Shown: piece by piece, positions 11,862-64,000 of the stretch
How the letters are laid out: each line of letters begins with the position of its first letter
How positions within the stretch are numbered: position 1 is the first letter of the stretch
Source: Leuctra nigra
Taxonomy: Eukaryota; Arthropoda; Insecta; Plecoptera; Leuctridae
Direction: 5' to 3'
DNA length: 64,000 bases
Assembly: GCA_934045905.1 (NCBI GenBank)
Contig: OW203762.1
Location: forward strand, 25,080,345-25,144,344
Notes under the pieces: model-generated
Databases searched by the model: none
Told to the model about the DNA's origin: nothing
The model's input: the letters and a program-made list of their open reading frames with translations, nothing else
Program-made: the position numbers and the translations under genes

Positions 11862-14800
11862 CTATGGCCTGCGCAATATGGATCGTGATGAAGTGAAAAT
11901 AACTCCCGAGGACAAAGCTCTTTCGTTGTGATTCAACGCATTCCCGTCTTCCTTCAGCGGCGCTTTTATCGGATATCTGTCAGAATCTCCTTGCGTCGTT
12001 GTCTCGCTTCCCTCCTCCGTGACAGCATCCTGAGTTGGTCCTGGCTCGCCGCTCGCCATTCCCTCAAAGCTCGCGGCTTCCTCAGCATTCCCTTTTCGAC
12101 CAATAAACGACGTGATGTACTTCATGAATCCCGTGTAGTTCTCCTCAAAGAACGAGCGGGGACTTAATAACGGGTTTGGAACGTCCAACTTTACTTCACA
12201 TTGATTCTCAGAAGATGAGAAGGACACTCCTTCGCGCTCCTCTGGCAGCGATGGAGCCGCTGAAAAGTCCCTCGTCTGAGTATGATTGGGTTTATTCAAA
12301 ATCTTGATTGTCTTAGTCGGATGGCTGACGGTTTCCAAAGAATGAGAACTAGAGCTCACAGAATCTCGAGGCGACTTTGGTGGTTCATTACCACTTTTCG
12401 TTTCGTAAAGTACTTCGAAGTTCTTTAAAGCTGGAGTAAACTCCATAAGTTCTTTTAAATAATTAGGGTACTTCATCGCTGCAAACTTTTTGATGGTACG
12501 TTGTGGTTTCTCGGAGGAATGAGGGATGCTGCTATCATTAGGACGGTCCCGAAGATCACAGAAATCATCGTCAAAGTCGGTGTCGTTATAAGCAGTTGAC
12601 ACGATGCCAAATGAAGGGTATGATGCGGCACTCGGATAGCTTACGCCCGATGAACTACTACAACTCGTTTTAGGATCTTTATTACATTCTGTGGGTTTAT
12701 CTTTTGACGAGGACGAATTATCTTTGTCACATGAAGGACCAATTCCCCTTGACTTGGGACCCCTTTTACAATCGCCATCAGAAGATTTATCATCCTTACA
12801 GGGGGGGAAAGGCATCTTCTTGCATGAGCCAATACCATCATTCGGCTTACTTGTATCACCACATGGCGACTCTTTCTTAGGTGCTTCTTTCTCTGTCTTC
12901 TTTGGTTCTTCTTTTTTGCCGCAAGGGTCTATCTTTTTTGGTTCTTCCTTCTTAACGCACGGTTCTATCTTTTTTGGTTCTTCTTTCTTAGCGCACGGGT
13001 CTATCTTTTTAGTTGACTCTTCCGGTTTGGCACAAGGATCTATCTTTTTACATGGTTCTTCTTTCGTTGCGCAAGGCTTTTGACTTGGCTCGTCTTTCTT
13101 TGGAGGCTCTGGAATCTTAGCACAAGGATCTTTCTTTTTGCAAGGATCGTCTTTCTTTTGACTTAATTCGTCTTTCGTTCCACAAGGCTTTTGACTTGAC
13201 TCTTCTTTCTTTGGAGGCTCTGGCATCTTAGCACAAGGATCTTTCTTTTTGCAAGGATCGTCTTTCTTTTGACTTGATTCGTCTTTCGTTCCACAAGGCT
13301 TTTGACTTGACTCTTCTTTCTTTGGAGGCTCTGGCATCTTAGCACAAGGATCTTTCTTTTTGCAAGGATCGTCTTTCTTTTGACTTGACTCTTCTTTCTT
13401 TGGAGGCTCTGGCATCTTAGCACAAGGATCTTTCTTTTTGCAAGGGTCGTCTTTCTTTTGACTTGAAGGGTCATCTTTCTTTGCACACGGATCCTGCTTT
13501 GGTTCATCTTTCTTATCACACGGATCTTTCTTTGCACATGGGTCTTGCTTTGGTTCTTCTTTCTTTGAACTTGGTGGATCCCACTTTGGCTTTTTAATAT
13601 TGGCACAAGGATCTTTCTTTACACATGGAGGATCCTCCTTCTTTTTTGATTCATCTTTCTTTTTACATGGATCCTGCTTTGGCTCATCTTTCTTTTTACA
13701 TGGATCCTGCTTTGGTTCTTCTTTCTTATCACATGGCCCCTTGTTTGCACATGGGTCCTGTTTTGGTTCTTCTTTCTTTGAACTTGGTGGATCCCACTTT
13801 GGCTTTTTAATATTGGCACAAGGATCTTTCTTTACACATGGAGGATCCTCCTGCTTTTTAGATTCATCTTTCTTTTTACATGGATCCTGCTTTGGCTCAT
13901 CTTTCTTTTTACATGGATCTTGCTTTGGTTCTTCTTTCTTATCACTTGGCCCCTTGTTTGCACATGGGTCCTGCTTTTGTTCTTCTTTCTTTGAACTTGG
14001 CGGATCCCACTTTGGCTTTTTAATATCAGCACAAGGATCTTTCTTTAAGCACGGAGGATCCTCATGCTTTTTAGATTCATCTTTCTTTTTACATGGATCC
14101 TGTTTCGGTTCATCTTTCTTTGCACATGGGTCCTTCTTTGGTTCATCTTTCTTTGCACATGGGTCCTTCTTTGGTTCATCTTTCTTAGAACCACCCTTTT
14201 TCTCTTTCTTGCATGGATTTTCCATTTTCATCATTTCTTTACACGGATCTTCTTTCTTGGTGTCTTGCGGTTTTGTTGCATCTATGTCCGTCTTCTTTGA
14301 GCATGGCGGCTCGATCTTTAAGTAATCTTTGCAAGGGTCCTCTTTCTTATCTTTACTACAAGGATCTTCTCTTTTTGAGTGGGCATCTTCCTTCTTGGGC
14401 TTATCACTTTTCTTCTTCCAAAACCACGAGCAATCCTCTTCTGGAGCCTCAATACCAGGACATATCTTGACTTCATTGTTGAGTTCCATATATTTTGCCG
14501 GTTCTATCAGCTCTAAATGTTCCTTTGCACTTGCCATCTGGATGCCAGACGGGCCGCGTTTTACTCGACTTATGACTTGGACCTTTTCGGTGGCATTGAC
14601 GTCTACAGATTCAATCACAGGTGGCTTTGTTTTAAGCTGTTTTCTCCTCCTAAAGTTTGATGGCGCAGGTTTTGGGGCCCTGAGAGGTTTATAGTCAGTC
14701 GCTTTCTTCATGAAGTGCTTAGCGGATAAATCTGTCGTTACATTTTGAACAAGAGCAGCGTCTTTACTCTTGATCCACTTGCCCTCGATGTCTTCAGACT

Positions 14801-17675
14801 TGTCCCACATTTCAGCGTTCACCGCAGCTTGTATTTGAGCTTCTTTCACTTTAGACATCGACGACGTCGAAACAGCTGGGTGCCCTTTGGGTGGTTGGTC
14901 GTACTTTGAAGCGGCGATTCGAGTCATCGATGGACTTAGCTTTACATCAACGAGTGGCATCCGGTCACGTTCATACTTTTCTTCTGGTCTGCCCTCTTCT
15001 GGTCTCGGCGATTTACTAGCCAAGGTTTTAATAATGGCCAATGTCACTTCGCTTTCTTGCGCCTTCTCTCTAGCTGCTATTTCTCTTTTCAGATTCTCTA
15101 TTGCTGCCTGATTCAAGGACGGCGCTTTACTTGCAACTTTCTTAGACGGGGACGCCACTGCAAGTGGATCTTTGTTCTCGGCGTGTTCCAACGACTTCTT
15201 CGCAGCATCAATGACTGCCAATGTGACTTGTGTCTCGAGCGTCATTGCTGCTGGAGGTGGTTTTGCTGGTGCTACTCGAGTCATTTTTACTACACGTGGT
15301 CTCAACTTCGCCGGCAATTGATAGGCAGTAAACCATTTGTTATCGGCATTCAACACTTCTGCCTCCTCAGCGTTATTCATTCTTTCTTTTACTATTGCTG
15401 CTCGATTTGACACGTTAAAATACCATGCCCCTAGCTCCGTGTTTCCTTTAGATTTTCCTGATGATATTTTCACCTCGGCCAACGACCTTTTGGGAACATT
15501 GCCTACTTTATCAATCTTTCGTATATTTGGCGTTGTTTTAACGTTGACGTATTCAGAGTAGGAAGGATGTGGAGGCAGTTTCTTCTCGAACGATTCTTGC
15601 TCGCGTAAATGAGACAAAGAGAGGTTGGGAGTCTTCTTGTCTGCTGTCCACTTCGAGTAATGGCGTTTCTCCTTCAATTCAATCGAAGGGTCTTGTTCGT
15701 AAGAAGTATGTGGAGGCACTTTCTTCTCGAATGCATCTTGCTCGTGTAAATGAGTCAAGGAGAGGTTGGGGATCTTCTTGTCTACTGTCCTTTTCGAGTA
15801 ATGTCGTGTCTCTTTCAATTCAATCGATGAGTCTTGCTCGTAAGCTCGGTTCGCCTTCGGTTGTGTTTTAACATTGGTTTTGTGTTGAGACGTCAGATAG
15901 GTGTCGTTGATTGACAGAACGGCTGGTTTGGTCTGCGCAGGCTTCGGAATGATCGGCCTCTTCGCCGTGGTGGCGCTGTTGCTGAACTGTCGGCCGTGGT
16001 TGGTCATCGCGGAGAATCGAACCGGAGACTGCGACCTCGACCTCGGCAAGTACATGTTGCTGGATACGTGCGTGCCGTCAACCAACGCGATGGCACGAGT
16101 TTTGTTCCTCGCTCGGTGTTGAATTACCTCAATGTGTTCGCCGTAGTTTGGTTTGAGTCCACTCAGAATCAATTTCGTATCTCGTGAAATTGTCGCCGGT
16201 TCTATGCTAACTGGTTTTGGAATAACGTTACGACCCATCAGTTGAACAATCGGTTCGTCGGCAAAAGTTTGTTTTGTTTTCTTTTTCGCCGCAGTTATGA
16301 TCTTGTTAGAATTCTCTTTGCTGTCATTTACCACAACACGGTTGACTTTCATTGTAGCACGCACTCCTAAAGGCAGAGATTTGTGGGTTTTCAGACTATT
16401 CGTTTTATTTGTAATGAGTACTTGATTTCTCTTGTCTCCTTTTAGTTCAACTTTACTGCTTTTCAGTGGAACTTTTGGAGGCGGAGTTAAATCCGCAATT
16501 ATTTGATCCGGCATGATAACGATTGGCGGTTTTTCAGGTTCTCTTTTACCAACAAAGAATGTCCTAATGGGAGACAAATACTCCAATGACGGTTTTGCAA
16601 TCGGTGGAGGAGCCTCAAATCTCACGGGCTTAATGAGCGGCGCCTCCACTTTGGCAAGACGAGGAACCAACGTGATCGGCACCTTGAGAATCGGCTCCGG
16701 GATGACTTTAATCCGGGATGATATGATCCTCATCTTCGGCTTCTGTCGAGTGGACTTCACGGAGTTGCTCTTGTTGGAATAGGATCGCTGTTGGCATGTA
16801 GTCGTACCTCGCAGTCGACTACGACTACCTTTCACTTCAAGAGGCCCCTTCGCCGTATCATTGGTCAACATGTCTTGCGTTTGACGAGCTTTCTCGCCAG
16901 ATCGCGGTCGAGTCACCACTTCAACTTTCTTTTTCTGAGCATTCGCTTTAAGCGTTAACTCATCCTTCAGTTTAGCGAACATTTTGCGCGGTGACATGGC
17001 ATATTTATAAGGGTAAGCAAGGCTAATTTCAGGCGCAGGCTTCGCGCTTTTGATGGATATCGTCGACTTCGGTTTGGATACACTAAACTTAGCTGTTTGA
17101 TTTACCAATCTTCTGAATGGAAGCTTGAACTCTGAAGACAGGTTCTTCTTTAGTTCCTTACTCTTAATTTGCAGACTATTCTTCGAGGTTTTTGGTTGAG
17201 TTTTCTCTGCACTACGAGACCTCAACACCTGTGGCTTAACTGCCGCCACTCTCGGCTGACTAGCTGCATTGTAACTCAGATTCTGTCTCGAATGCGCATT
17301 CGCAGAACTTACCTTCTCCGAGTTCTTCTGATTGAAGAGATAAGCAATCATCGCATTCTTGTTCGCGATCCATGACTCCTCCGGCTTCTCGTTGTTCTTG
17401 GCATGTTTCTGGGCGACGCCGAGCTCCTGGTCGCCGCGAAAGAAGCCGGTGATCCAGGACTTGGCGCGGAATGGGATGCGAATCACAGCGTAGCGCTGGT
17501 CACATGGTAACACGGTCCGCAATAGAGGCAGAGGAGCTTGGCGGAACGACGCGCGGCTCTCGCTGAAGCATCGCGGTACCAATCGATGTGACTGGACAGT
17601 AAACATAACGTCAAACAATATTATAAAGTGACAGCAGATGTAACAACAATCTTTCAATCTGAACCTCTTGAACAT
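11862..17675 (-). CDS. Lys/Cys-rich repeat protein, about 1,937 residues, function unknown
   Basis: One uninterrupted frame of 5.8 kb. The first ATG in frame is at 17675 and the next at 17606. The segment from the second Met on is Arg-rich with few acidic residues (MFTVQSHRLVPRCFSES), as in a mitochondrial presequence, but a good splice acceptor (TTTACTGTCCAG) at about 17595 means upstream exons may instead supply the start. Residues about 620-720 hold a twofold repeat around ELKE.RHYSK and KIPNLSLTHL. Residues about 1095-1610 are dozens of DPC-centred repeats such as KKDEPKQDPCKKK, with nested higher-order copies. The C-terminal 340 residues are less repetitive and acidic, with FDDDFCDLRDRPND and FFEENYTGFMKYI. 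I recognise no family; cysteine-bearing Lys-rich repeats could suit a disulphide-linked sperm or cuticle structural protein, which is only a guess. Confidence 0.75.
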   Translation of the reverse strand: MFKRFRLKDCCYICCHFIILFDVMFTVQSHRLVPRCFSESRASFRQAPLPLLRTVLPCDQRYAVIRIPFRAKSWITGFFRGDQELGVAQKHAKNNEKPEESWIANKNAMIAYLFNQKNSEKVSSANAHSRQNLSYNAASQPRVAAVKPQVLRSRSAEKTQPKTSKNSLQIKSKELKKNLSSEFKLPFRRLVNQTAKFSVSKPKSTISIKSAKPAPEISLAYPYKYAMSPRKMFAKLKDELTLKANAQKKKVEVVTRPRSGEKARQTQDMLTNDTAKGPLEVKGSRSRLRGTTTCQQRSYSNKSNSVKSTRQKPKMRIISSRIKVIPEPILKVPITLVPRLAKVEAPLIKPVRFEAPPPIAKPSLEYLSPIRTFFVGKREPEKPPIVIMPDQIIADLTPPPKVPLKSSKVELKGDKRNQVLITNKTNSLKTHKSLPLGVRATMKVNRVVVNDSKENSNKIITAAKKKTKQTFADEPIVQLMGRNVIPKPVSIEPATISRDTKLILSGLKPNYGEHIEVIQHRARNKTRAIALVDGTHVSSNMYLPRSRSQSPVRFSAMTNHGRQFSNSATTAKRPIIPKPAQTKPAVLSINDTYLTSQHKTNVKTQPKANRAYEQDSSIELKETRHYSKRTVDKKIPNLSLTHLHEQDAFEKKVPPHTSYEQDPSIELKEKRHYSKWTADKKTPNLSLSHLREQESFEKKLPPHPSYSEYVNVKTTPNIRKIDKVGNVPKRSLAEVKISSGKSKGNTELGAWYFNVSNRAAIVKERMNNAEEAEVLNADNKWFTAYQLPAKLRPRVVKMTRVAPAKPPPAAMTLETQVTLAVIDAAKKSLEHAENKDPLAVASPSKKVASKAPSLNQAAIENLKREIAAREKAQESEVTLAIIKTLASKSPRPEEGRPEEKYERDRMPLVDVKLSPSMTRIAASKYDQPPKGHPAVSTSSMSKVKEAQIQAAVNAEMWDKSEDIEGKWIKSKDAALVQNVTTDLSAKHFMKKATDYKPLRAPKPAPSNFRRRKQLKTKPPVIESVDVNATEKVQVISRVKRGPSGIQMASAKEHLELIEPAKYMELNNEVKICPGIEAPEEDCSWFWKKKSDKPKKEDAHSKREDPCSKDKKEDPCKDYLKIEPPCSKKTDIDATKPQDTKKEDPCKEMMKMENPCKKEKKGGSKKDEPKKDPCAKKDEPKKDPCAKKDEPKQDPCKKKDESKKHEDPPCLKKDPCADIKKPKWDPPSSKKEEQKQDPCANKGPSDKKEEPKQDPCKKKDEPKQDPCKKKDESKKQEDPPCVKKDPCANIKKPKWDPPSSKKEEPKQDPCANKGPCDKKEEPKQDPCKKKDEPKQDPCKKKDESKKKEDPPCVKKDPCANIKKPKWDPPSSKKEEPKQDPCAKKDPCDKKDEPKQDPCAKKDDPSSQKKDDPCKKKDPCAKMPEPPKKEESSQKKDDPCKKKDPCAKMPEPPKKEESSQKPCGTKDESSQKKDDPCKKKDPCAKMPEPPKKEESSQKPCGTKDELSQKKDDPCKKKDPCAKIPEPPKKDEPSQKPCATKEEPCKKIDPCAKPEESTKKIDPCAKKEEPKKIEPCVKKEEPKKIDPCGKKEEPKKTEKEAPKKESPCGDTSKPNDGIGSCKKMPFPPCKDDKSSDGDCKRGPKSRGIGPSCDKDNSSSSKDKPTECNKDPKTSCSSSSGVSYPSAASYPSFGIVSTAYNDTDFDDDFCDLRDRPNDSSIPHSSEKPQRTIKKFAAMKYPNYLKELMEFTPALKNFEVLYETKSGNEPPKSPRDSVSSSSHSLETVSHPTKTIKILNKPNHTQTRDFSAAPSLPEEREGVSFSSSENQCEVKLDVPNPLLSPRSFFEENYTGFMKYITSFIGRKGNAEEAASFEGMASGEPGPTQDAVTEEGSETTTQGDSDRYPIKAPLKEDGNALNHNERALSSGVIFTSSRSILRRP
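12880..14420 (-). repeat. Coding minisatellite encoding DPC repeats
   Basis: Internal to the long ORF. Short units encode PKQDPCKKKDE and PKKEESSQKKDDPCKKKD. Two larger segments of about 220 bp, each with GGATCC-containing units and the peptide KKPKWDPPSSKKEE, repeat at about 13570-13800, 13790-14020 and 14000-14060. The frame is preserved throughout, which suggests selection for the peptide or expansion in codon multiples. Confidence 0.85.
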
Positions 17676-17861
17676 TTCACAATGCAATGTGTTTTCACTC
17701 AACACAAAAACACCAAGAAGCAGAATGAGACATCGTATGAAAATATGAGCTCAAAGTGTGTGAGCAAAATATTGGTGATGCTGCAACAGTAAATGACTGG
17801 ACACTATATTATTTGCAACCTCTTTAACAATCGCTCTGGACTAGATCTATGGATCTCTTTG

Positions 17862-19408: not shown

Positions 19409-22400
19409 GTAAGTAAAATCTTGTTTTTTCAGTGTTCTCGCAATAACCATGGGCTTGACGGAAATATGGACAGATTTCCGCCATGTCCAATAATATATAT
19501 TTGTCTTTGTTCGAGATAATGTTGTTATATAATATTTTTTATTTTTTTATATCAGATATACTATTTCCATGCCTAAAATGTCAACTGTCAGTCTACATAT
19601 TGTCGGGTTCTCGACAATTATTTACAGATGTTCACGGATTTCGGTAAAAATCATTCTGTGAATGTGAGAACGAAGAGCAGGTAGATCATGTAGTTGTCGG
19701 ACAGGATGTGAAGAACATTGCGGGGAATCTGTTTTCATACGAATAACTGATTGATTGAATACTAATTCTTACAGTGAAACAACGTATCATGTGATGTGGT
19801 CTGGTACACTCAAACCAATAAAATCGGCACTCGAAAAGAAAAGGATTAGCTGATTATGGTTTGATGGCATCATCCCATGAAGGCTGTGTTAACGCATCAT
19901 CTACCTCTAGTAGTTGAGCTCTTATTTCATTGATAATAACAAGGATTGATTGTCAAGGAACCTTACCAGCAGCCAATCCTTTTCTTTTCGAGTATCAATT
20001 TTTATTGGTTTGAGCGTACATAGATTATGGTGAAAAACGAGATTTTCGTTTTATGAGTTGTACTTTTTTTATTGAGAATATTTTTCTGTTTATTTTTTTA
20101 AAATAGGTACAATTAGGGCCGGTTTTTCAATTCAACGAGTTGCATTGGTTGTTGCCATGGCAATAATATAGTCCTAATCAATGGTATAAAATTTGGCAGA
20201 GTATTGAAAAACTGGCCCTTAATCTTCAATATTGCCGAAGTTACAATTCTTTTAACTAAACTGAAAAACGATAATTTTGAGACAAACAGCGTTTATTTAC
20301 AAATTAATTTTTACGGGTACTAAATGCCTTGTAATAAACAAATAAAAGTTTAAAATAACAAAGAGTAGAAAAAATAAACATCAATCATTTTCAGTTCAGC
20401 TCAGTTCATTTTTATTTCCAAAAAACATATCTTTTTACAGTACATGTTAAAGACTCCTTAACGTTGACAAGTTAGCGAAGGTAATTTTTCTCTGACCTCA
20501 TCATATAATATAATTCCTCCCTCATTCTGAAATGCTGCATTATAAGTGAATGAAAGGTATACTTTGATGATGTTACAAAACTATTTTGGGGAATCCTCAC
20601 CTGTGGTACGGGTACAAATCATCGACTTGATTCGGCTTATGAAAGGGATTTTGCTCTGAAATATGCTAGATTTACAAAGTCATAAAACTCAATAAAGGGC
20701 GCAAATGTACACCTAGTGGTTTTTTCAAAATAGCGACCAAGTCTAAGTTATAGTTGAAGAACAGCCTATTGCTGAAAGAGAATAATGTTTTAACGACGCT
20801 CGCTCAACTACAAATCAGTAGGTACTCGATATTAATGGATAGAAACAAATTATTCTCTACAAAATGGGTGCAACAATATTTTCGAAACAATATTAAACAA
20901 CATTGCCGAACAATATTAGAGGTACACTCTGGACACTGCAATTGGTCCGCGGTCAATGTTCAAGTGACACTACGGCTAGTATATTTAACATTTATTTTAA
21001 TGTATTTTTTTGGCACAAAGACCGGATGGCTAGTGTGAGTTAAGGGCCGAAAAATTACTTTAAAAAAATAAATAAATAGGTACTAGCCTAGAAGTCGAGT
21101 GAATATTGACTGAGGACCATTTTCCGTGTCCTGGGCTGCGATATTGTAAAATGACAACTTTCTTGTCACGGTGGCAAGCTTCTCATCTCAATGTTATTCA
21201 CGGCCTTCTAGGGTCTTGTCACCGTGACAAGGGAGTTGTCATTTTATACGATCGCAGCCCAGAAGTGTTCCTACATGTTTTTTTTGTTTTTTTAAATTAT
21301 TTTCGGTATTTTAATTTTTTGAAATTTAAGGGAGTTAAATCATTCCTGTGGACGTCCAATGGCCACCACAAAACTAAATTTTCTACAATTTTTATTTACT
21401 CTCCACTTTTCAGCCTATGATTCCGTTCATGTTTGAGATCGAGTGGTCCGCGGACGGCGAGGGGACCGACTGCAGCACGACGTCGTCCCCCCGTCTCTCC
21501 GCCCCGGGGGAGGTTCGAACCCGCGACTCCATGAGCGACGACGACCTCATGTCCGACGACTTCTTCCTGCCCGACTCCGAGGACGACGAGCTCGTCAATC
21601 CACCGAGGCACGTGGTAACCATGAGCAATCATGACGACGATGAGAGGGTAGCTACGTCACATCCGCCGCGAATAATTGTGAGGAAAATGTTCACCAATAG
21701 CCGAGAACGATGGAGGCAGCAAAACGTGAGCGGTGCTTTTGCTGAGCTGAGACGTTTGGTGCCGACGCATCCTCCCGATAAGAAGTTGTCCAAGAACGAG
21801 ATCCTACGCATGGCGATCAGGTGAGGATGGCGGTAAAGATCGGGGTTGAACTGATGATAAGTATTTTGATTAATTAATAGTCGTGCTTGAAGACGCACAA
21901 TAGCGGTGGATCAATGATTATGATGATGCTATTCATGGTTTGCACGTGATGCTATCTCATTGATTCCTGCCACCATCTTGATGGCACGCAGAATAGCAGT
22001 GATTCTCTGCTTTTTTGACGATATTTTATCGGAGATATCTTAAGTACGAAGAGGAATCACTCGCATCACAAAAATACATCGACTTACTCAAATAAAGTTA
22101 TAATCTGACCCGTCAACGTGCCAACAAAATGTCCGTCCTCAGGTGGAAAATTCAATAATTTTGCATTGCTGATATAAATAAAAGAAGTTCGATTCCCGCG
22201 ACCATCCTTCCGGACTGAGGAAGTTTCGTGGTTTCCCTCAGTCTAGAGGCAAATGAGGGGAAGGTTCTTATGCGCGACGCCGTCTCCTTCCTACATTCTA
22301 TCCTTTCTTTCATCATAGTCTCCCAATCATGATCAAAATCATTTATCCTTCTTCAATAGCCTACTTGTAGAACAGTACGACGTTAAATAACATTAAATTA

Positions 22401-25400
22401 AAATAAAAATGTATCCGGACCTATTTTACTGTATGAGTATGGGGTTTATTACGACAATGATATCGAGGACTTTGACGGGGGATTGAAAGTATAGACCCCC
22501 AAATGCAGTAAAAATCATGTCAATCAACACTTTGACAACCGATTGGGAACGTTCAACGTTCAACGAATCAGTAACGAAACTTAACAGTTCGAATGCTGGA
22601 GACAAACAAAATACGAGTATAGGGGCAGAATACATAATTTGATTGCTTTGCATAACATCTCACAATTAACGTCGTGTTGTCTAGAAATTAAGTCGAATGA
22701 GAGCAAAACAAATTAATTACTATTTGAACGTTGAACCTTAGAACACACTTACATACTGGCGTTGGCGTATAGAATAAGCAGTCAGTCAAAATAATGTTGT
22801 TTATTTCGAGATTCGTTGAGCATTGAGGAAGGAAGTTCTGAAAATGGAGAAGGCGTGACATATTACCTAAGTTAAGTTTCATTCCACATGTTTTAGTTTT
22901 TAGGAAGTGCCAATGTGGCTGCAAGCTTTAGTGAATAGATATTTAGACTACCTACTCGTACTTAATTTCAATGCAAATTCTTGATTGAACGAGGAATCGC
23001 TGCTGGTCTCTTTAAAGAGTTCAAATTCATTTTTTTTTTATTGAAACAAATACACAAGATAAATACACTTTACAAAAATTATACACTCAGGTCCACAAAG
23101 CCATAAATGGATTGAATGTGGAAGTAAACAAATTAAGATATAAACATAATAACTTAACAGAAAATAACTTGCATTACGATTGCAACAAACAAACAGTCAA
23201 ACAGCATTGACGGATGACAAGAACAAAAAACAAAAATATGACTGACTCAAAGATGATGATTTATATTATATAACCCTAAAAATTTATTGAAAATCTACCT
23301 GCACTGGCAGTTGTGCACTGTTGCCATATTGCCCGCCCGACTATACGATATTATAACTACTTAGTACTTACCTACCTATTATATGCACTAAAACTGATGA
23401 CAGGCTGATGGCAAATGTACAATAGATAATGGGGTGAAAAAGCACAGCTCACCATCTGATTCGTGATCCCCTATTCCAAATTTGTAAAGAGTAAATGACA
23501 ATTAATTGCATTCCCAATCACCCTCATCAAGAAATGAGGTCGCACGGTTGGTCAAAGCGATTTTTTGAAATTTTTCATCACACTTATAAGATAAAAAAAA
23601 ATCAGATAGTAGCGACCTATTACAGCTAATGCCACACACATGGAGTACTTTATTTGATTTTTTTTTAAATTTATAAGTGTGATGAAAAATTTCAAAAAAT
23701 CGCTTTGACGAACCGTGCGTTTTTTATTGGTCTTTTATTCTCCTCGTGCACATTGCAACATTCTTGCAGGTATATCCGACTGTTGAGCAACGTGCTGGCT
23801 TGGCAACATTGCAACATTCTTGCAGGTATATCCGACTGTTGAGCAACGTGCTGGCTTGGCAACATTGCAACATTCTTGCAGGTATATCCGACTGTTGAGC
23901 AACGTGCTGGCTTGGCAACATTGCAACATTCTTGCAGGTATATCCGACTGTTGAGCAACGTGCTGGCTTGGCAACATTGCAACATTCTTGCAGGTATATC
24001 CGACTGTTGAGCAACGTGCTGGCTTGGCAACATTGCAACATTCTTGCAGGTATATCCGACTGTTGAGCAACGTGCTGGCTTGGCAACATTGCAACATTCT
24101 TGCAGGTATATCCGACTGTTGAGCAACGTGCTGGCTTGGCAACATTGCAACATTCTTGCAGTATATCCGACTGTTGAGCAACGAGCTGGCTTGGCAACAT
24201 TGCAACATTCTTGCAGGCATATCCGACTGTTGAGCAACGTGCTGGCTTGGCAACATTGCAACATTCTTGCAGGTATATCCGACTGTTGAGCAACGTGCTG
24301 GCTTGGCAACATTGCAACATTCTTGCAGTATATCCGACTGTTGAGCAACGTGCTGGCTTGGCAACATTGCAACATTCTTGCAGGTATATCCGACTGTTGA
24401 GCAACGTGCTGGCTTGGCAACATTGCAACATTCTTGCAGGTATATCCGACTGTTGAGCAACGTGCTGGCTTGGCAACATTGCAACATTCTTGCAGGTATA
24501 TCCGACTGTTGAGCAACGTGCTGGCTTGGCAACATTGCAACATTCTTGCAGGTATATCCGACTGTTGAGCAACGTGCTGGCTTGGCAACATTGCAACATT
24601 CTTGCAGGTATATCCGACTGTTGAGCAACGTGCTGGCTTGGCAGAAGAGTCAGGACTCCAGGACGACTGTGAAGTGTGAGACTCCTGGATGCGAGGGCAA
24701 GATGAACGGGAGATGTCGTCTGCATCCGCGAGGACATCTGGCAACAGCGCGACCTCACAGAGATCAGAATGGCAACACACTCATGGGACACATCAAGGTA
24801 GTTTGACTTTCTCTTAATTCAAGCTATCGGATTTTCGAAATGTTTGAGATAAATCGAGTAAAATTCAGTGATCTCGTTGAGGCCAAGAAAATCGTTTAAA
24901 TTTTAGAGAATGAACAAACATAATTTTTTGAATAGATGGATTTCTAACAAAAAATTGAAAAATTTTAAACAGGGAAAGAATGCTAAATGTTTTTTTTTTA
25001 AATTAGTTGAATGTGTAATATTGCAGTGATTTTTTATGAGTTTTCAGAATATACCCTCGGTTTTTAGAAAATATTGCCACAAAGTCTTGAAAAACGCAAT
25101 TGAAATATTGATTTGTATGGAAGATAGATCAGGCTTCAACATAATTAAAAGCTAAACAAAAGCAGAATGATTTTCGAATCCATCATTTTTATTTATCCAT
25201 ACTCCGAAGACATACAATTTAAACCAATTGTATACTAGGTAGGTACTTACCTAGGTAAGTTGGAAAATGTGGTACAAAAATAATCTATTCTCGCAAAAAA
25301 CAATTCTATATGATTTTGATCTGGAAGCCTATTCTTGAGTTTTCACATTTTGAACCCATTTACGTTTTCATCGTTTAAAACGTAAAAAATTTGAAACTGT

Positions 25401-25726
25401 TTCAAGTTTTATGCATACAAACGTAAATGGTTTCAAAACGTAAAAACTCAGGCCTCCAGAGGTTGTCTTATGTGACACTTCTCCAGAAACAGGAAGTTTA
25501 GTTTTAGAGTGTCACATTCTTGGAACTTGTCTGTTTTCAGGCCGAGCACATGGAAGAGGGCGAAGACCAGGACTCCGTCAACGTCAACGACAACATGGCA
25601 TCTCCCAAACTCATTCCATCTGCCGGGCCCAAGCGCAGGCCCAGGAACAGACGGGCCCGATTACCGTGGACTTACTGGACCGGGTCCAGCTTCCCACTGC
25701 CAGATCCTGACAAGGTGAAGAAGTAG
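19406..25726 (+). CDS. HLH3B: bHLH transcription factor, TAL1/SCL class
   Basis: Predicted exons: 19406-19408 (ATG only), 21414-21820, 24608-24797 and 25541-25726, giving 261 residues; a start at the internal Met two codons into exon 2 is equally possible. Residues 91-149 form the bHLH: the basic region [15 protein letters not shown], helix 1 and loop with [17 protein letters not shown], then helix 2 reading [13 protein letters not shown] across the exon 2/3 junction. The basic region and loop are characteristic of TAL1/SCL/LYL1 and Drosophila HLH3B, which bind E-boxes as heterodimers with E proteins and often act with LMO and GATA factors. The N-terminus is acidic ([18 protein letters not shown]); the C-terminus is basic and unrecognised. 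Exon 3 begins at the last of 16 tandem copies of its own acceptor. The symbol is by class, not by proven orthology. Confidence 0.85.
19804..20019. mobile_element. MITE, 215-bp GTAC-ended family, copy 2
   Basis: 216 bp with long inverted ends: GTACACTCAAACCAATAAAA at left and the complement of GTACGCTCAAACCAATAAAA at right; the match continues through cactcgaaaagaaaaggatt. This is the best-preserved copy of the family. It lies in intron 1 of the bHLH gene. Confidence 0.8.
20113..20222. mobile_element. MITE, GGCCCGGTC family, short copy
   Basis: About 110 bp with ends TTAGGGCCGGTTTTTCAAT and the complement of TTAAGGGCCAGTTTTTCAAT. The middle shares gttgccatggcaa and gtcctaatcaatgg with the copy at 531-685. 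It lies in intron 1 of the bHLH gene. Confidence 0.7.
21131..21262. mobile_element. Short inverted-repeat element in bHLH intron 1
   Basis: A 132-bp near-palindrome. Both arms read CTGGGCTGCGAT, then aaaatgacaact, then cttgtcacggtg, with a few mismatches over about 45 bp. The RNA would form a long hairpin. It lies 150 bp upstream of exon 2. No target duplication is obvious. Confidence 0.7.
22187..22405 (+). repeat. SINE copy, 5'-truncated
   Basis: Starts inside the B box (gttcgattcccgcg) and continues with the shared body, including gactgaggaagtttcgtggt, then gtagaacagtacgacg and an A/T-rich tail. It lies in intron 2 of the bHLH gene. Confidence 0.7.
23541..23719. mobile_element. MITE with 50-bp inverted ends, abutting the acceptor array
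   Basis: The left arm begins CGCACGGTTGGTCAAAGCGA and the right arm is the complement of CGCACGGTTCGTCAAAGCGA. Homology extends about 50 bp through ttgaaatttttcatcacact. A T-rich stretch (ttttttattggtcttttatt) follows at once and leads into the first copy of the 56-bp array. No target duplication is clear. Confidence 0.8.
23747..24642 (+). repeat. 16-copy, 56-bp tandem array of the exon 3 splice acceptor
   Basis: Each unit is about 20 bases of intron end (cattgcaacattcttgcag) plus the first 36 bases of exon 3 (gtatatccgactgttgagca onward). The gcag landmarks run from 23766 to 24604; two units are 55 bp because one G after the AG is missing. Units are otherwise almost identical (one unit has gagctgg for gtgctgg and one has ggcatat for ggtatat). 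Only the last unit runs on into the unique exon 3 sequence. Confidence 0.95.
25319..25461. mobile_element. MITE-like inverted repeat in bHLH intron 3
   Basis: 143 bp. The left arm tctggaagcct, then ttgagtttt, then acccatttacgttt is matched by the complementary right arm (tctggaggcct, then tgagttttt, then aaccatttacgttt). It is non-coding and ends about 80 bp before exon 4. Confidence 0.6.
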
Positions 25727-58800: not shown

Positions 58801-61800
58801 GAATGCGATAAGACTGACTTCCAACAATTAATATGGCACTCAAAGCAAATTGCAGTAAAATTCACGTTTTATTTAATATTAGGTACCTATCCTTATTTTA
58901 GAAGAAACGTGTAAACAAAAATGTTTTCAAGTCCTTGCAACTTTATTCTATTTTCTATTCCCATAAAATGAAAGCTATCTGCGTATAGATAGAATTCGCA
59001 TAGTACAGGATAAATGTTACCTAGATAAAACCCTTCCTTTCAAGAACCGTTGTCGAATATTGCGTTACGCACACAATTTCTACGCATTATACAATTAGTC
59101 ATAACTCGAATGAAGTAAGATTTATGAAATTCCTAAATCTTAATCCGAAAAAATGTTGAGTGTCTCTAACTCTCAATTTAACTCTTCTTCATCAAGATCT
59201 TCATTCTCTCCCCTCGCATTATATTACGCCGACCATGAAGTTAAGACGGAAATTGCATTTCTTCTGGTTCTAATCTCTCCCTCCAGTAGCGCTGGCGACG
59301 CTAAACATGATTCCATCCCTTATCTTGGCGCTCATTAGCATGGTCGTGTTACGTCAGTGCTGCCAGCCCCTGGTGGTGCGAACAATACACCGAATCAACG
59401 TTAATTAACACGCGCCAAGCGGCGACAAGCGGCGACAAGGGGAACTAGATTATTGGCTTTATGGGAAATGTTTTCAAATAAAAAACGTTCCATTTCTGTT
59501 TGGTAGCAAAAGATTTAAATAAAAACATCGAACGGATGTAGTTGGAGTTAAATTTCAGAATATTTGAAGAATATCGTCCTAAACATGCTCTAATATATCA
59601 AGAGGCATAACAAATCGGGATTTTATAAAATCCCGATTTTTTTTAAGTTACGGAAAGAATGTAACCCCCGGTGATTATAAAATATGATAAGGACAAAATG
59701 ATGAAATTTGATAGATGTGATGTGATCTCTGTTCAACTTTGCCGAATAATTTTAAAGTTCTGTCAATTAAAATATTCAACGTAGAAAATGGGAATATTGA
59801 AAGAAAGTCTGTAGTCGGTATAACTTGTCATTTGAAAGTTACAACGAGCGAGCGCAATTTGAAATGTAAATGATAGCGTATTTCTCTTTCACGTAAAAGA
59901 TTTTTAAAACGTTTAATTTAACGAAAGTGTAGGTATTCAAAATATTATGGAAGTTGTTGAAGGATCTATACAGTATAATTCTTTGATTTTTTTAATATAT
60001 ATAAACTTTTGAGTTCAAATATAAATTTTAACGAATTTCGATTTCTTAAGCAAACTGTCTAAATTATTATATACACTTTGACATGTTAACACATATCCAA
60101 TTATTTTGAACCATCAACTGTATTCCCAATTATATTGCCATTTGGAACTTTTTAGGATGACCGATTAAAAAGTAATTTGTTGGTTGTGTCAACTCTATGC
60201 GTGCAAAAACAAATATGACACCTGTAGGGCTTATAATTCACAATCCTCAGAATCTGTAACAATTAGCTTTAGCGCTGACTCGGAGTCTGACACGCTAACA
60301 CTTTACACCAATATGATCTGCTGATATCAAGCTAAAATATGATTTATTGATCTGGAATAATGATCTATGAAATTATCTGGAAGAAATGATTGATGAGTAG
60401 AAAATAGAAATACATCCCTTGAAAGGGACGAATCGAACCAACACATTGACTTCTCTTCTAAATCCCTGATCGTTTGTAGTACATAACTATGCTAAACCAT
60501 GTTTGAGAGTAGTACATAACTATGCTAAACCATGTTTGAGAGTAGTACATAACTATGCTAAGCCATGTTTGAGAGTAGTACATAACTATGCTAAACCATG
60601 TTTGAAAGTAGTACATAACTATGCTAAACCATGTTTGAGAGTAGTACATAACTATGCTAAACCATGTTTGAGAGTAGTACATAACTATGCTAAACCATGT
60701 TTGAGAGTAGTACATAACTATGCTAAACCATGTTTGAGAGTAGTACATAACTATGCTAAACCATGTTTGAGAGTAGTACATAACTATGCTAAACCATGTT
60801 TGAGAGTAGTACATAACTATGCTAAACCATGTTTGAGAGTATAGTACATAACTATGCTGAACTATGTTTGATACCTTGCTAATGTATAAGGCGTAGGATT
60901 ATGTTCTCCGGGATGAAGCAAATCAAAAGACTGAAAAAACTTTTAACTCCCATTAATTTAAAATTCTCAACGCTGTCTGTTCGTGTGCCTCTACTTTTGT
61001 CTCTTATTCTGGCAAAAAAAAAGTAATAGAGTTGAATAATTGCAATGAATTTGACTGCTCAGCCTCAGCATAGTAGGGGGGATACAATCTATACTCGTAC
61101 ATGCTACGTGTTCTTCTAAAGGTAAGTTCCCATGTATACATTGTATAGCATTCGCTTCATTTGACGATTTCCTTGGTTAAAAGGTAGCCATTTTGCGAAA
61201 GCGAATCGGAAACGAAGCGAATGCGATGCGAAGTATTGGAACTTAGCTTTACAGTCTTTAGATTGCGAGTAGTCCTCTTTGGAGTCCGATAAACAGCCAA
61301 GAAATTAAACCCTTTTATGTGCATGATAAATATTCCTATCTTGTAGCACAAACAAATAGTATAATCGTTGATTTGTGATGTCCAGAGCGCTCCTGTACGG
61401 TGTTGTCGAGGACTTCCTGAGCAACTTCGGCATGGACGGCAAGGCGTGTCTGCTGAGGGCGATGTGCGAGGTCCACGGACAACACGTCTATCAGCTCGGC
61501 TTCGTCGGGGAGATCATCAAGCTCTTCTTCACGTGAGTGTTGCATTGTTCAAGAAGTTGACATCACGATAAGATATTAACCAGAGTTGGTCGTGCACTTT
61601 TTCGTCGAAGTATTAGATGGCATGGTAATGAATATCCATGTAATGTAATTAAAATTAAAGTTTTATAAATCGAAAGGAAAATGTAATTTTCTCTTTCCTA
61701 TTGGCCGAGTAAAATGAAGACCCAATAAAGGGCTATAATTTCAGACTTTTACTTGCTGTTTACTTGCTGTTTACACTTGATTGAAGGTCTATGCGAGAAG

Positions 61801-62500
61801 GGAAAGGTCAAAAGTCTACTTTGAAAAGCTGATTTTGTAAAGTCCATAGCATAATATACAATTCAAATTTTACAATTTCCTCAAAACGGAATTTATTGTT
61901 TAGAAATTGAACTTGCTAAATTTGAATTGTATGCTAAAATATACCAACAATATGTACAATATGTACTGTACAATTCAAATTTGTAAATTTCCTCAAAACG
62001 GAATTTATTGTTTAGAAATTGAAATTGCTAAATTTGAATTGTATAGTGGGATTTGGTGTGATATGGACTAGAAACATTTTTCTTCTAAGTTGAGTTATAT
62101 GTTCAATGAAACGTTACCAACAAAAACGAGCCTTTTATGTAGGTTACATTCCCCTCTCGATAATAGTTAGAAATGAATTTTGAAAAAGGTTGAAAATATA
62201 TATTTTTATACTTGTACTGTTCCTGAGATCTTTTTAAAGTAGTTTGGGACCCAAACATTGATTCCAATTACTGATCCATTTATTTGATGAATGTTAACGT
62301 ATCTTTATCAATCACTTACAATCTCTGATCATTCTGTTAACGATGAATGTTGCAGGGCAAGCAAGTCTCCATTTGCTCACATGTTGGACGAATACGTGTC
62401 GGCCGAGCGCACGGGCCAGGACCTGGGAGAGTGCTTTCCCTACTACAAAGACTGCCCGAAGTCCTTATTTCTCGGGCTCAGTGAAAACAAATACAAGTAA
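55891..62500 (+). CDS. Secreted DM4/DM12-family protein, four exons
   Basis: Exons 55891-56137, 58233-58437, 61386-61532 and 62356-62500; phases agree and give 247 residues ending at TAA. Residues 1-22 are a signal peptide (LSALLAAAVLVNA). RQKR at 32-35 is a furin-like site, and NMT at 74-76 a glycosylation site. Residues about 151-243 form the DM4/DM12 domain with its conserved cysteines (ACLLRAMCE, ECFPYYKDCP) and the FVGEIIKLFFT motif. The family is insect-specific, secreted and of unknown molecular role. The stop codon overlaps a consensus donor (CAAGTAAGT), so splicing onward is a possible alternative; family length favours ending here. The CDS is bounded on both sides by tandem copies of its own ends. 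Confidence 0.85.
56138..58232 (+). other. Intron 1 of the DM4/DM12 gene
   Basis: Starts GTAAGT and ends TTTTGCTAG. It holds a small triple repeat of aggatgaaatt (56406-56445) and a hairpin near 57240. There is no other gene. Confidence 0.6.
58438..61385 (+). other. Intron 2 of the DM4/DM12 gene
   Basis: Starts GTAACT and ends TGATGTCCAG. A GC-richer patch at 59150-59440 contains no supported exon. The 33-bp minisatellite lies at 60476-60875. Confidence 0.6.
60476..60875. repeat. 33-bp minisatellite, 12 copies
   Basis: Unit gtagtacataactatgctaa plus accatgtttgaga. Eleven copies are nearly identical; the twelfth is shifted by two bases and diverged. Because 33 is a codon multiple and the unit lacks stops in two frames, spurious open frames appear on both strands. 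It lies wholly in an intron. Confidence 0.95.
61857..62046. repeat. Tandem duplication of a short foldback unit in intron 3
   Basis: Two copies (about 61857-61933 and 61968-62046) of acaattcaaatttt ... ctcaaaacggaatttattgt ... aaatttgaattgt. Each unit has inverted ends, so it may be a tiny MITE inserted or duplicated in tandem. Confidence 0.65.
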
Positions 62501-64000
62501 GTCGAATGGGGCCAGGATCTGGGAGAGTGCTTTCCCTACTACAAAGACTGCCCGAAGTCCTTATTTCTCGGGCTCAGTGAAAACAAATACAAGTAAGTCG
62601 AATGGGGCCAGGACCTAGGAGAGTGCTTTCCCTACTAAAAAGACTGCCCGAAGTCCTTATTTCTCGGGCTCAGTGAAAACAAATACAAGTAAGTCGAATG
62701 GGGCCAGGACCTAGGAGAGTGCTTTCCCTACTAAAAAGACTGCCCGAAGTCCTTATTTCTCGGGCTCAGTGAAAACAAATACAAGTAAGTCGAATGGGGC
62801 CAGGACCTGGGAGAGTGCTTTCCCTACTACAAAGACTGCCCGAAGTCCTTATTTCTCGGGCTCAGTGAAAACAAATACAAGTAAGTCGAATGGGGCCAGG
62901 ACCTGGGAGAGTGCTTTCCCTACTACAAAGACTGCCCGAAGTCCTTATTTCTCGGGCTCAGTGAAAACAAATACAAGTAAGTCGAATGGGGCCAGGATAT
63001 GGGAGAGTGCTTTCCCTACTACAAAGACTGCCCGAAGTCCTTATTTCTCGGGCTCAGTGAAAACAAATACAAGTAAGTCGAATGGGGCCAGGACCTAGGA
63101 GAGTGCTTTCCCTACTAAAAAGACTGCCCGAAGTCCTTATTTCTCGGGCTCAGTGAAAACAAATACAAGTAAGTCGAATGGGGCCAGGACCTAGGAGAGT
63201 GCTTTCCCTACTAAAAAGACTGCCCGAAGTCCTTATTTCTCGGGCTCAGTGAAAACAAATACAAGTAAGTCGAATGGGGCCAGGACCTGGGAGAGTGCTT
63301 TCCCTACTACAAAGACTGCCCGAAGTCCTTATTTCTCGGGCTCAGTGAAAACAAATACAAGTAAGTCGAATGGGGCCAGGACCTGGGAGAGTGCTTTCCC
63401 TACTACAAAGACTGCCCGAAGTCCTTATTTCTCGGGCTCAGTGAAAACAAATACAAGTAAGTCGAATGGGGCCAGGACCTAGGAGAGTGCTTTCCCTACT
63501 AAAAAGACTGCCCGAAGTCCTTATTTCTCGGGCTCAGTGAAAACAAATACAAGTAAGTCGAATGGGGCCAGGACCTAGGAGAGTGCTTTCCCTACTAAAA
63601 AGACTGCCCGAAGTCCTTATTTCTCGGGCTCAGTGAAAACAAATACAAGTAAGTCGAATGGGGCCAGGACCTAGGAGAGTGCTTTCCCTACTAAAAAGAC
63701 TGCCCGAAGTCCTTATTTCTCGGGCTCAGTGAAAACAAATACAAGTAAGTCGAATGGGGCCAGGACCTGGGAGAGTGCTTTCCCTACTACAAAGACTGCC
63801 CGAAGTCCTTATTTCTCGGGCTCAGTGAAAACAAATACAAGTAAGTCGAATGGGGCCAGGATCTGGGAGAGTGCTTTCCCTACTACAAAGACTGCCCGAA
63901 GTCCTTATTTCTCGGGCTCAGTGAAAACAAATACAAGTAAGTCGAATGGGGCCAGGATCTGGGAGAGTGCTTTCCCTACTACAAAGACTGCCCGAAGTCC
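62413..64000 (+). repeat. 96-bp tandem array of the last coding segment plus stop codon
   Basis: Seventeen units, the last cut by the window end. Each repeats the final part of exon 4 (gggccaggacctgggagagt onward) through the TAA/donor and 13 bases beyond. The first unit is the real coding end. Two linked variants occur: type A (ctggga with tactacaaag) and type B (ctagga with tactaaaaag, which adds an early stop). Order by eye: AABBAAABBAABBBAAA. Confidence 0.95.

What the first reader, a model, noticed from the sequence alone, without database searches (positions are those of the whole stretch)
23747..24797. Sixteen tandem splice acceptors in a TAL1-class bHLH gene, only the last in frame
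The 56-bp unit spans the intron/exon border of exon 3, inside helix 2 of the bHLH. Use of any upstream acceptor still encodes helix 2 ([12 protein letters not shown]), then reads [11 protein letters not shown] and stops (units before a 55-bp copy read on slightly further). So upstream choices give a protein with an intact bHLH but no C-terminal third, or an RNA exposed to nonsense-mediated decay. The strong pyrimidine stretch lies before the first unit, more than 850 bases from the one in-frame acceptor.
Basis: partly seen in the sequence, partly recalled or inferred. Interest (0 to 1): 0.9.

Follow-up and report, generated by a model that had tools for sequence, protein, structure and literature searches.

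The report
Repeated splice sites in stonefly gene
In a stonefly genome, a 56-base stretch covering the end of an intron and the start of the next exon of a developmental gene is repeated sixteen times in a row, and similar repeats sit on exon edges of other genes of the same insect, a pattern described before in lancelets.

Summary
Window 23750-24643 holds 16 units (14 of 56 bp, 2 of 55 bp; 13 identical) across the intron-2/exon-3 border of an HLH3B (TAL1/LYL1-class bHLH) gene; only acceptor 16 is in frame.

It is best read not as a switch special to this gene but as a "mirage": a minisatellite spanning an exon-intron border, known from lancelets, where normal splicing is reported to persist. 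The same genome holds 13 tandem donors in the nearby APD1-4-like gene (only the first keeps frame), 32 tandem acceptors in a Band_7/stomatin-like gene found at an arbitrary sampling point, and two arrays over coding ends.

Any chain of such splices ending at unit 16 gives the in-frame message. The locus is thus a natural test of intron birth by repeat expansion at dual-specific splice sites. No RNA data were available; which acceptors are used is open.

The parts
21414..21820 (+). Exon 2 of the HLH3B-like gene (basic region, helix 1, loop, start of helix 2); donor ATCAG|GTGAGG
   Evidence: acceptor TTTTCAG before 21414; Pfam HLH
23541..23719 (.). Inverted repeat (61-nt arms, 93% complementary, 57 nt between), a foldback-like element ending 30 bp before the array
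   Evidence: role unknown
23720..23749 (+). Pyrimidine-rich stretch with two YTNAY motifs, the only good branch-point/polypyrimidine context found among the four acceptors checked; first AG after it is acceptor 1
23750..24643 (+). Array of 16 units, each 20 bp of intron end (ACATTGCAACATTCTTGCAG) plus 36 (twice 35) bp of exon start; acceptors end at 23769, 23825, 23881, 23937, 23993, 24049, 24105, 24161, 24216, 24272, 24328, 24383, 24439, 24495, 24551, 24607
24142..24252 (+). Units 8 (55 bp, AG|TA, plus T>A) and 9 (AG|GC): units whose GT after the acceptor is broken
24309..24363 (+). Unit 11 (55 bp, AG|TA): third unit without GT after the acceptor
24608..24797 (+). Exon 3 proper, from the last acceptor to donor AAG|GTAGTT
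   Evidence: similarity of the downstream part to insect orthologs in tblastn
25541..25726 (+). Exon 4 to the stop codon (ends ...PDPDKVKK); acceptor TTTTCAG|GCC
   Evidence: the C-terminal KVKK also ends the Anabrus protein P0001
62413..64000 (+). Second coding-edge array in the window: 96 bp x 18, running on to L008:2143, over the end of a DM4/DM12 gene (...ENKYK then TAA/GTAAGT: stop or donor, undecided)

Best explanation
The array is a 'mirage' minisatellite: a short segment straddling an exon-intron border, multiplied head to tail by unequal exchange or slippage. It grew into the intron, so the copy touching the rest of exon 3 (unit 16) is still the true acceptor and the other 15 units are intronic by position. 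It is tolerated because splicing discards them. I think it most likely that the mature mRNA mainly joins exon 2 to acceptor 16, and that removal is helped by AG|GT in 13 of 16 units: an upstream acceptor, once used, rebuilds a donor (AUCAG|GUAUAU) that can be spliced on to a later unit. Shown: the array, the frames, AG|GT, sister arrays on other coding edges. Inferred: the mode of origin, tolerance through splicing. Not shown: use of any acceptor, or of any unit's GT as a donor.
For: Array and frames; AG|GT in 13 of 16 units and GT...AG of exactly 56 nt from each GT-bearing unit to the next (12 of 12). Mirror case in the nearby APD1-4-like gene: 13 donors, CAG|GTGAGA intact in 13 of 13, only donor 1 keeps frame, junction contiguous in 5 of 5 aligned orthologs. 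Acceptor array in a Band_7 gene at an arbitrary sampling point. Of 12 distinct arrays (period >=20, >=4 copies, >=90% match) in about 312 kb, 5 lie on a coding edge, 4 of 11 without this one. GTATAT and GTATAC serve as donors in myosin genes here. Lancelet mirages reported not to disturb splicing.
Against: No RNA. By sequence acceptor 1, not 16, has the good branch-point and pyrimidine context. GTATAT is a weak donor by the usual consensus (recalled). The shortest of 13 introns read here is 75 nt, so a 56-nt step may be too short; two-unit steps of 112 nt would do. Three of 16 units have lost the GT, which a needed ratchet would not favour. The survey is small, coding edges were judged by eye, and half of it lies around the window.
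Confidence: 0.6

Rival explanations
1. One reading: upstream acceptors are used and stay used, giving a bHLH protein without its C-terminal third or an RNA exposed to nonsense-mediated decay, so the array tunes or truncates HLH3B output.
For: Acceptor 1 is the first AG after the only good pyrimidine/branch-point context among the four acceptors checked; 13 of 15 upstream acceptors keep helix 2 and all 15 stop early.
Against: Same kind of array on unrelated genes of this genome; lancelet mirages reported not to give aberrant mRNAs; the C-terminal part resembles that of other insects, so the full protein was kept at least until the array arose.
Confidence: 0.2
2. A recent, unstable and mildly or strongly harmful expansion carried by the sequenced individual, possibly absent or short in other individuals or on its second haplotype.
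For: 13 of 16 units identical, so the array is young or recently homogenised; lancelet mirages differ in copy number between haplotypes and even somatically.
Against: Several such arrays in one genome argue against a single rare harmful allele; no population data here.
Confidence: 0.15
3. Assembly artefact: a single copy multiplied by the assembler.
For: Tandem repeats are prone to this; one lancelet mirage was misassembled in the draft genome. Exact copy number here is unchecked.
Against: HiFi library sheared to 12-20 kb against an 894-bp array, QV 57.2; units carry private differences, and other arrays have their own variants.
Confidence: 0.03

Closest known systems
'Mirage' minisatellites of lancelets (Adh3, troponin C, globins BflGb6 and BflGb9, PGBD5); PMC3087553, PMC3902484, passages seen
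   Different: Insect instead of lancelet; 16 copies (13 and 32 in sister arrays) against 3 or 6 in BflGb6; RNA support for normal splicing exists there, not here.
Dual-specific AGGT splice sites in tandem repeats, human UBC (PMC10809524, abstract and parts 1-3 of 7)
   Same: Every unit boundary is AG|GT, and introns there are whole multiples of the unit.
   Different: UBC units are coding and a multiple of three, so they can be kept; the 56-bp unit cannot be kept in frame. Use as donor not shown here.
Intron gain by tandem duplication across an intron-exon border, potato RdRp (PMC4974935, abstract and sections 3 and 5)
   Same: Duplicated piece holds the intron end and exon start; the new intron takes its acceptor from the next copy.
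   Different: Two copies there, with a cryptic GTAAG donor and RNA-seq support; here 16 copies and the possible donor lies at the acceptor itself.
Recursive splice sites (ratchet points) of Drosophila (PMC8605326, abstract and introduction)
   Same: Acceptor and donor juxtaposed, so a first splice rebuilds a donor.
   Different: Those lie mostly in long introns and are conserved sites; here a tandem array of near-identical units, with GTATAT.

Membership tests
Mirage minisatellite | Tandem repeat unit spans an exon-intron border | tested here: met
   Units hold 20 bp of intron end and 36 (or 35) bp of exon start; homology of exons 2-3 to HLH3B proteins
Mirage minisatellite | Seen in several genes of the genome, at both acceptors and donors | tested here: met
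   Donor array L016, acceptor array L024
Mirage minisatellite | Normal splicing persists | not testable with these tools
   No RNA data held
Mirage minisatellite | Copy number unstable between haplotypes | not testable with these tools
   Alternate haplotype GCA_934046545.1 exists but is not held
Dual-specific or recursive splice site array | AG|GT at the unit border | tested here: met
   13 of 16 units
Dual-specific or recursive splice site array | The same site used as acceptor and as donor | not testable with these tools
   Needs junction reads or lariats
Dual-specific or recursive splice site array | Donor sequence and intron size workable in this genome | tested here: inconclusive
   GTATAT used in a myosin gene; shortest of 13 introns read is 75 nt against 56 nt per step
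TAL1/LYL1-class bHLH (HLH3B) | HLH domain and best matches to TAL1/HLH3B-type proteins | tested here: met
   next to an APD1-4-like gene as in other insects by consecutive locus tags (listings)

The most novel reading that the evidence does not exclude
In this stonefly, minisatellites with AG|GT at their core are a genome-wide class that can expand across splice sites because each added unit is also a removable mini-intron. HLH3B intron 2 would then be spliced off in steps through dual-specific sites: introns being built by repeat expansion, caught in the act in many genes at once.
Probability: 0.28. Interest if true: 0.82.

Novelty: new member of a known kind. Interest (0 to 1): 0.58.

Why it matters
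In the papers found here, splice-border minisatellites are reported from lancelets. Several in one insect genome, at donors, acceptors and coding ends, would make the phenomenon more general and offer many independent cases in which to ask whether repeat growth at AG|GT sites creates introns, how the spliceosome chooses among near-identical acceptors, and how much repeat growth a gene can bear. The unit length of 56, not a multiple of three, makes the outcome easy to read from RNA.

Tried and rejected
A feature unique to HLH3B: rejected after sampling other DNA. All units read through as exon: rejected, acceptors 1-15 all meet stops. A second copy elsewhere: none at the sensitivity. Myosin motor exons as a test for exon arrays: among 93 listed matches (157 candidates, 65 scored) I saw no run of copies of one query range under 300 bp apart; seven copies of about range 377-436 at C1:19366964-19370357 lie a few hundred bases apart and look like mutually exclusive exons (recalled). 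Units as short as 56 bp would be missed, so the test is weak. Clustering of unit differences at the GT (3 of 4; p about 0.0006, or 0.008 if the two deletions are one event) was noticed after the fact and is not relied on; it could even speak against a needed ratchet. The 96-bp array at 62413 may lie over a stop codon or over a donor; undecided. Whole-genome searches for PF00010 and PF01145 and for TTGCAGGT and AGGTAAGT pairs did not complete.

Literature: searches (0 papers each for 22 and 32). Seen: PMC4974935 abstract and sections 3, 5; PMC8605326 abstract and introduction; PMC10809524 abstract and parts 1-3 of 7; PMC3087553, PMC3902484 and PMC2812944 passages; PMC10280035 part 1 of 3 and passages. 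Adh3, troponin C, Hellsten 2011 and Zhu & Niu 2013 are known only as cited there. PMC2812944 (human repeats at exon-intron borders may form novel introns) is a further related report.

Full report
What is there. The window is G000:C2:25080345-25144344 of a genome held as 536,196,549 bases in 144 contigs. Contig lengths (C1 68,080,570; C2 57,020,912; C5 39,220,573) equal the longest scaffold, chromosome 2 (57.02 Mb) and the scaffold N50 of the stonefly Leuctra nigra, ipLeuNigr2.1, published as 536,298,261 bp in 174 scaffolds, HiFi 32x, QV 57.2 (PMC10280035; taxonomy). At 23750-24643 sixteen units lie head to tail: 14 of 56 bp, two of 55 bp, 13 identical. Each holds 20 bp of intron end and 36 (twice 35) bp of exon start.

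The gene. Exon 2 (21414-21820), exon 3 (24608-24797) and exon 4 (25541-25726) encode a bHLH protein: Pfam HLH E 7.5e-19; best solved structure TAL1, E 3.1e-29; best hits include proteins named HLH3B, lyl-1 and T-cell acute lymphocytic leukemia protein 1. About 22 kb upstream on the same strand lies an APD1-4-like gene (exons in L016:471-9268), with a large unnamed open frame in between. Consecutive locus tags show the same two genes side by side in Blattella, Zophobas, Ampulex, Cryptolaemus, Pyrocoelia, Cardiocondyla and Hypothenemus (listings).

Frames. Joined to exon 2, acceptor 16 alone gives an open frame to the end of exon 4. Acceptors 1-15 all stop early, 173-955 nt before the exon 3/4 junction: eleven end [11 protein letters not shown] (120 aa counted from the ATG at 21531), two (7, 10) read on to 157 aa, two (8, 11) stop at once and lose helix 2. 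So helix 2 is kept in 13 of 15 cases, not in all.

Splice signals. Acceptor 1 is the first AG after a stretch with 0.80 pyrimidine at -50..-20 and YTNAY at -44 and -33. Of the other acceptors I looked at three (2, 9, 16): 0.47-0.50 and no YTNAY. At -20..-3 the units have 0.59 pyrimidine, within the range of 14 acceptors read in this genome, 0.29-0.88. Any chain of such splices that ends at acceptor 16 gives the exact in-frame message. GTATAT is used here: of 13 introns read by eye from translated exons (a fourteenth was dropped because its donor anchor failed; the APD1-4 intron was measured from its last donor), four donors begin GTAT and one, in a myosin gene with a 90-nt intron, is exactly GTATAT. 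Three of 14 acceptors are followed by GT in the exon. The shortest of the 13 introns is 75 nt, in a set chosen in part for short introns; a 56-nt step is therefore doubtful, a two-unit step of 112 nt is not.

A class, not a singleton. I ran TRF on 192 kb around the window and on twelve 10-kb pieces at arbitrary round coordinates, about 312 kb in all. Twelve distinct arrays have period 20 or more, four or more copies and 90% or more match. Five lie on a coding edge, judged by eye with Pfam support: the HLH3B acceptor; the donor of an APD1-4-like exon (L016:629-1967, 103 bp x 13); the stop of the same gene (L016:9201-9717, 121 bp x 4.3); the end of a DM4/DM12 gene (window 62413 to L008:2143, 96 bp x 18); and the acceptor of a Band_7/stomatin-like exon (L024:538-2063, 48 bp x 32). 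Without the array that led me here it is 4 of 11; of the twelve arbitrary pieces, 1 of 5 such arrays. The other seven showed no clear coding edge, but were not tested by homology. In the donor array CAG|GTGAGA is intact in 13 of 13 units while seven other variants occur, and only donor 1 joins the next exon in frame; that junction is contiguous in 5 of 5 aligned orthologs. In the Band_7 array 30 units read AG|GTACTG and two read AG|ATACATG; of the last four acceptors tested, only the final one leads into the exon without a stop in the homologous frame.

Wider signs. A genome-wide search for two TTTCAGGT 38-68 bp apart gave 96 + 79 matches against 62 + 46 for the reversed pattern, a modest excess; only part of the places was listed. 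Two evenly spaced clusters run into open frames: C1:749033-749260 (55 bp, five TTTCAGGT in L045) and C1:61604263-61612059 (41 bp; about 190 units if continuous, of which only the two ends were read). AG|GT was required by the pattern, and neither frame has a Pfam match, so these are candidates only. A leafhopper protein, P0038 (Homalodisca vitripennis), repeats the end of HLH3B exon 2: 1 of the 120 fetched HLH3B hits and 0 of the 120 fetched APD1-4 hits have repeated 10-mers. That suggests a donor-side array in the same gene in another insect, but it is a gene prediction.

Why edges. In the five sampled cases the copy next to the rest of the exon still gives the proper reading and the extra copies extend into intron or beyond the coding end. 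A simple reading is a selection filter: expansions within coding exons break the frame and are lost, those that grow outward from an edge can be spliced off or left untranslated. This is inference.

Known kind. Tandem repeats spanning exon-intron borders were named mirages in lancelets (Adh3, troponin C, globins BflGb6 and BflGb9, PGBD5). The passages seen say that splicing is apparently not disturbed, that many units hold AG/GT, that copy number differs between haplotypes, and that mirages may give rise to introns (PMC3087553, PMC3902484). Duan et al. [quoted passage not shown]). The potato RdRp gene is a two-copy case across an acceptor with RNA support (PMC4974935). Drosophila ratchet points show AG|GT used twice (PMC8605326). 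In the library searched, five papers hold the words mirage, minisatellite and intron: two concern lancelets and three look unrelated by title (not read). I found no insect report in the listings; subscription journals are mostly not held.

Verdict. It belongs to a known but seldom noted class that I have not found reported for insects. RNA across exons 2-3 would settle it.

Noticed in passing
L016:629-1967 (C2:25070629-25071967, about 8 kb before the window start): 103 bp x 13 array over the 3' end and donor of an APD1-4-like exon: 13 tandem CAG|GTGAGA donors, only the first in frame.
   Followed up: yes
L016:9201-9717: 121 bp x 4.3 array over the last codons and stop codon of the same APD1-4-like gene.
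   Followed up: partly
L024:538-2063 (C3:10000538-10002063): 48 bp x 32 array over the acceptor of a Band_7/stomatin-like exon.
   Followed up: yes
window 62413-64000 and on to L008:2143: 96 bp x 18 array over the end of a DM4/DM12 gene; unit variants recur in pairs and triples, pointing to duplication of several units at once.
   Followed up: partly
G000:C1:61604263-61612059 and C1:749033-749260 (minus strand): Evenly spaced TTTCAG|GT arrays of 41-bp and 55-bp units whose last unit runs into an open frame; no Pfam match.
   Followed up: partly
P0038 (Homalodisca vitripennis, protein listing): HLH3B-like protein carrying a misfit name with several tandem copies of the exon-2 end, as if an array covered the donor of the same intron.
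   Followed up: no
window 23541-23719: Inverted repeat, 61-nt arms, ending 30 bp before the array; perhaps a foldback transposon that set the intron end next to it.
   Followed up: no
window 11862-17750 (-): Open frame of 1962 codons with Lys/Cys/Pro/Asp-rich internal repeats and no Pfam match.
   Followed up: no
window 60476-60871: 33 bp x 12 array, open in the minus strand frame, no evident gene.
   Followed up: no
G000:C1:12123130-12126247 and 12136058-12139175: Same myosin exons listed twice about 12.9 kb apart with equal scores, as in a recent segmental duplication; a similar pair about 36.7 kb apart near C1:29082521 and 29119183.
   Followed up: no
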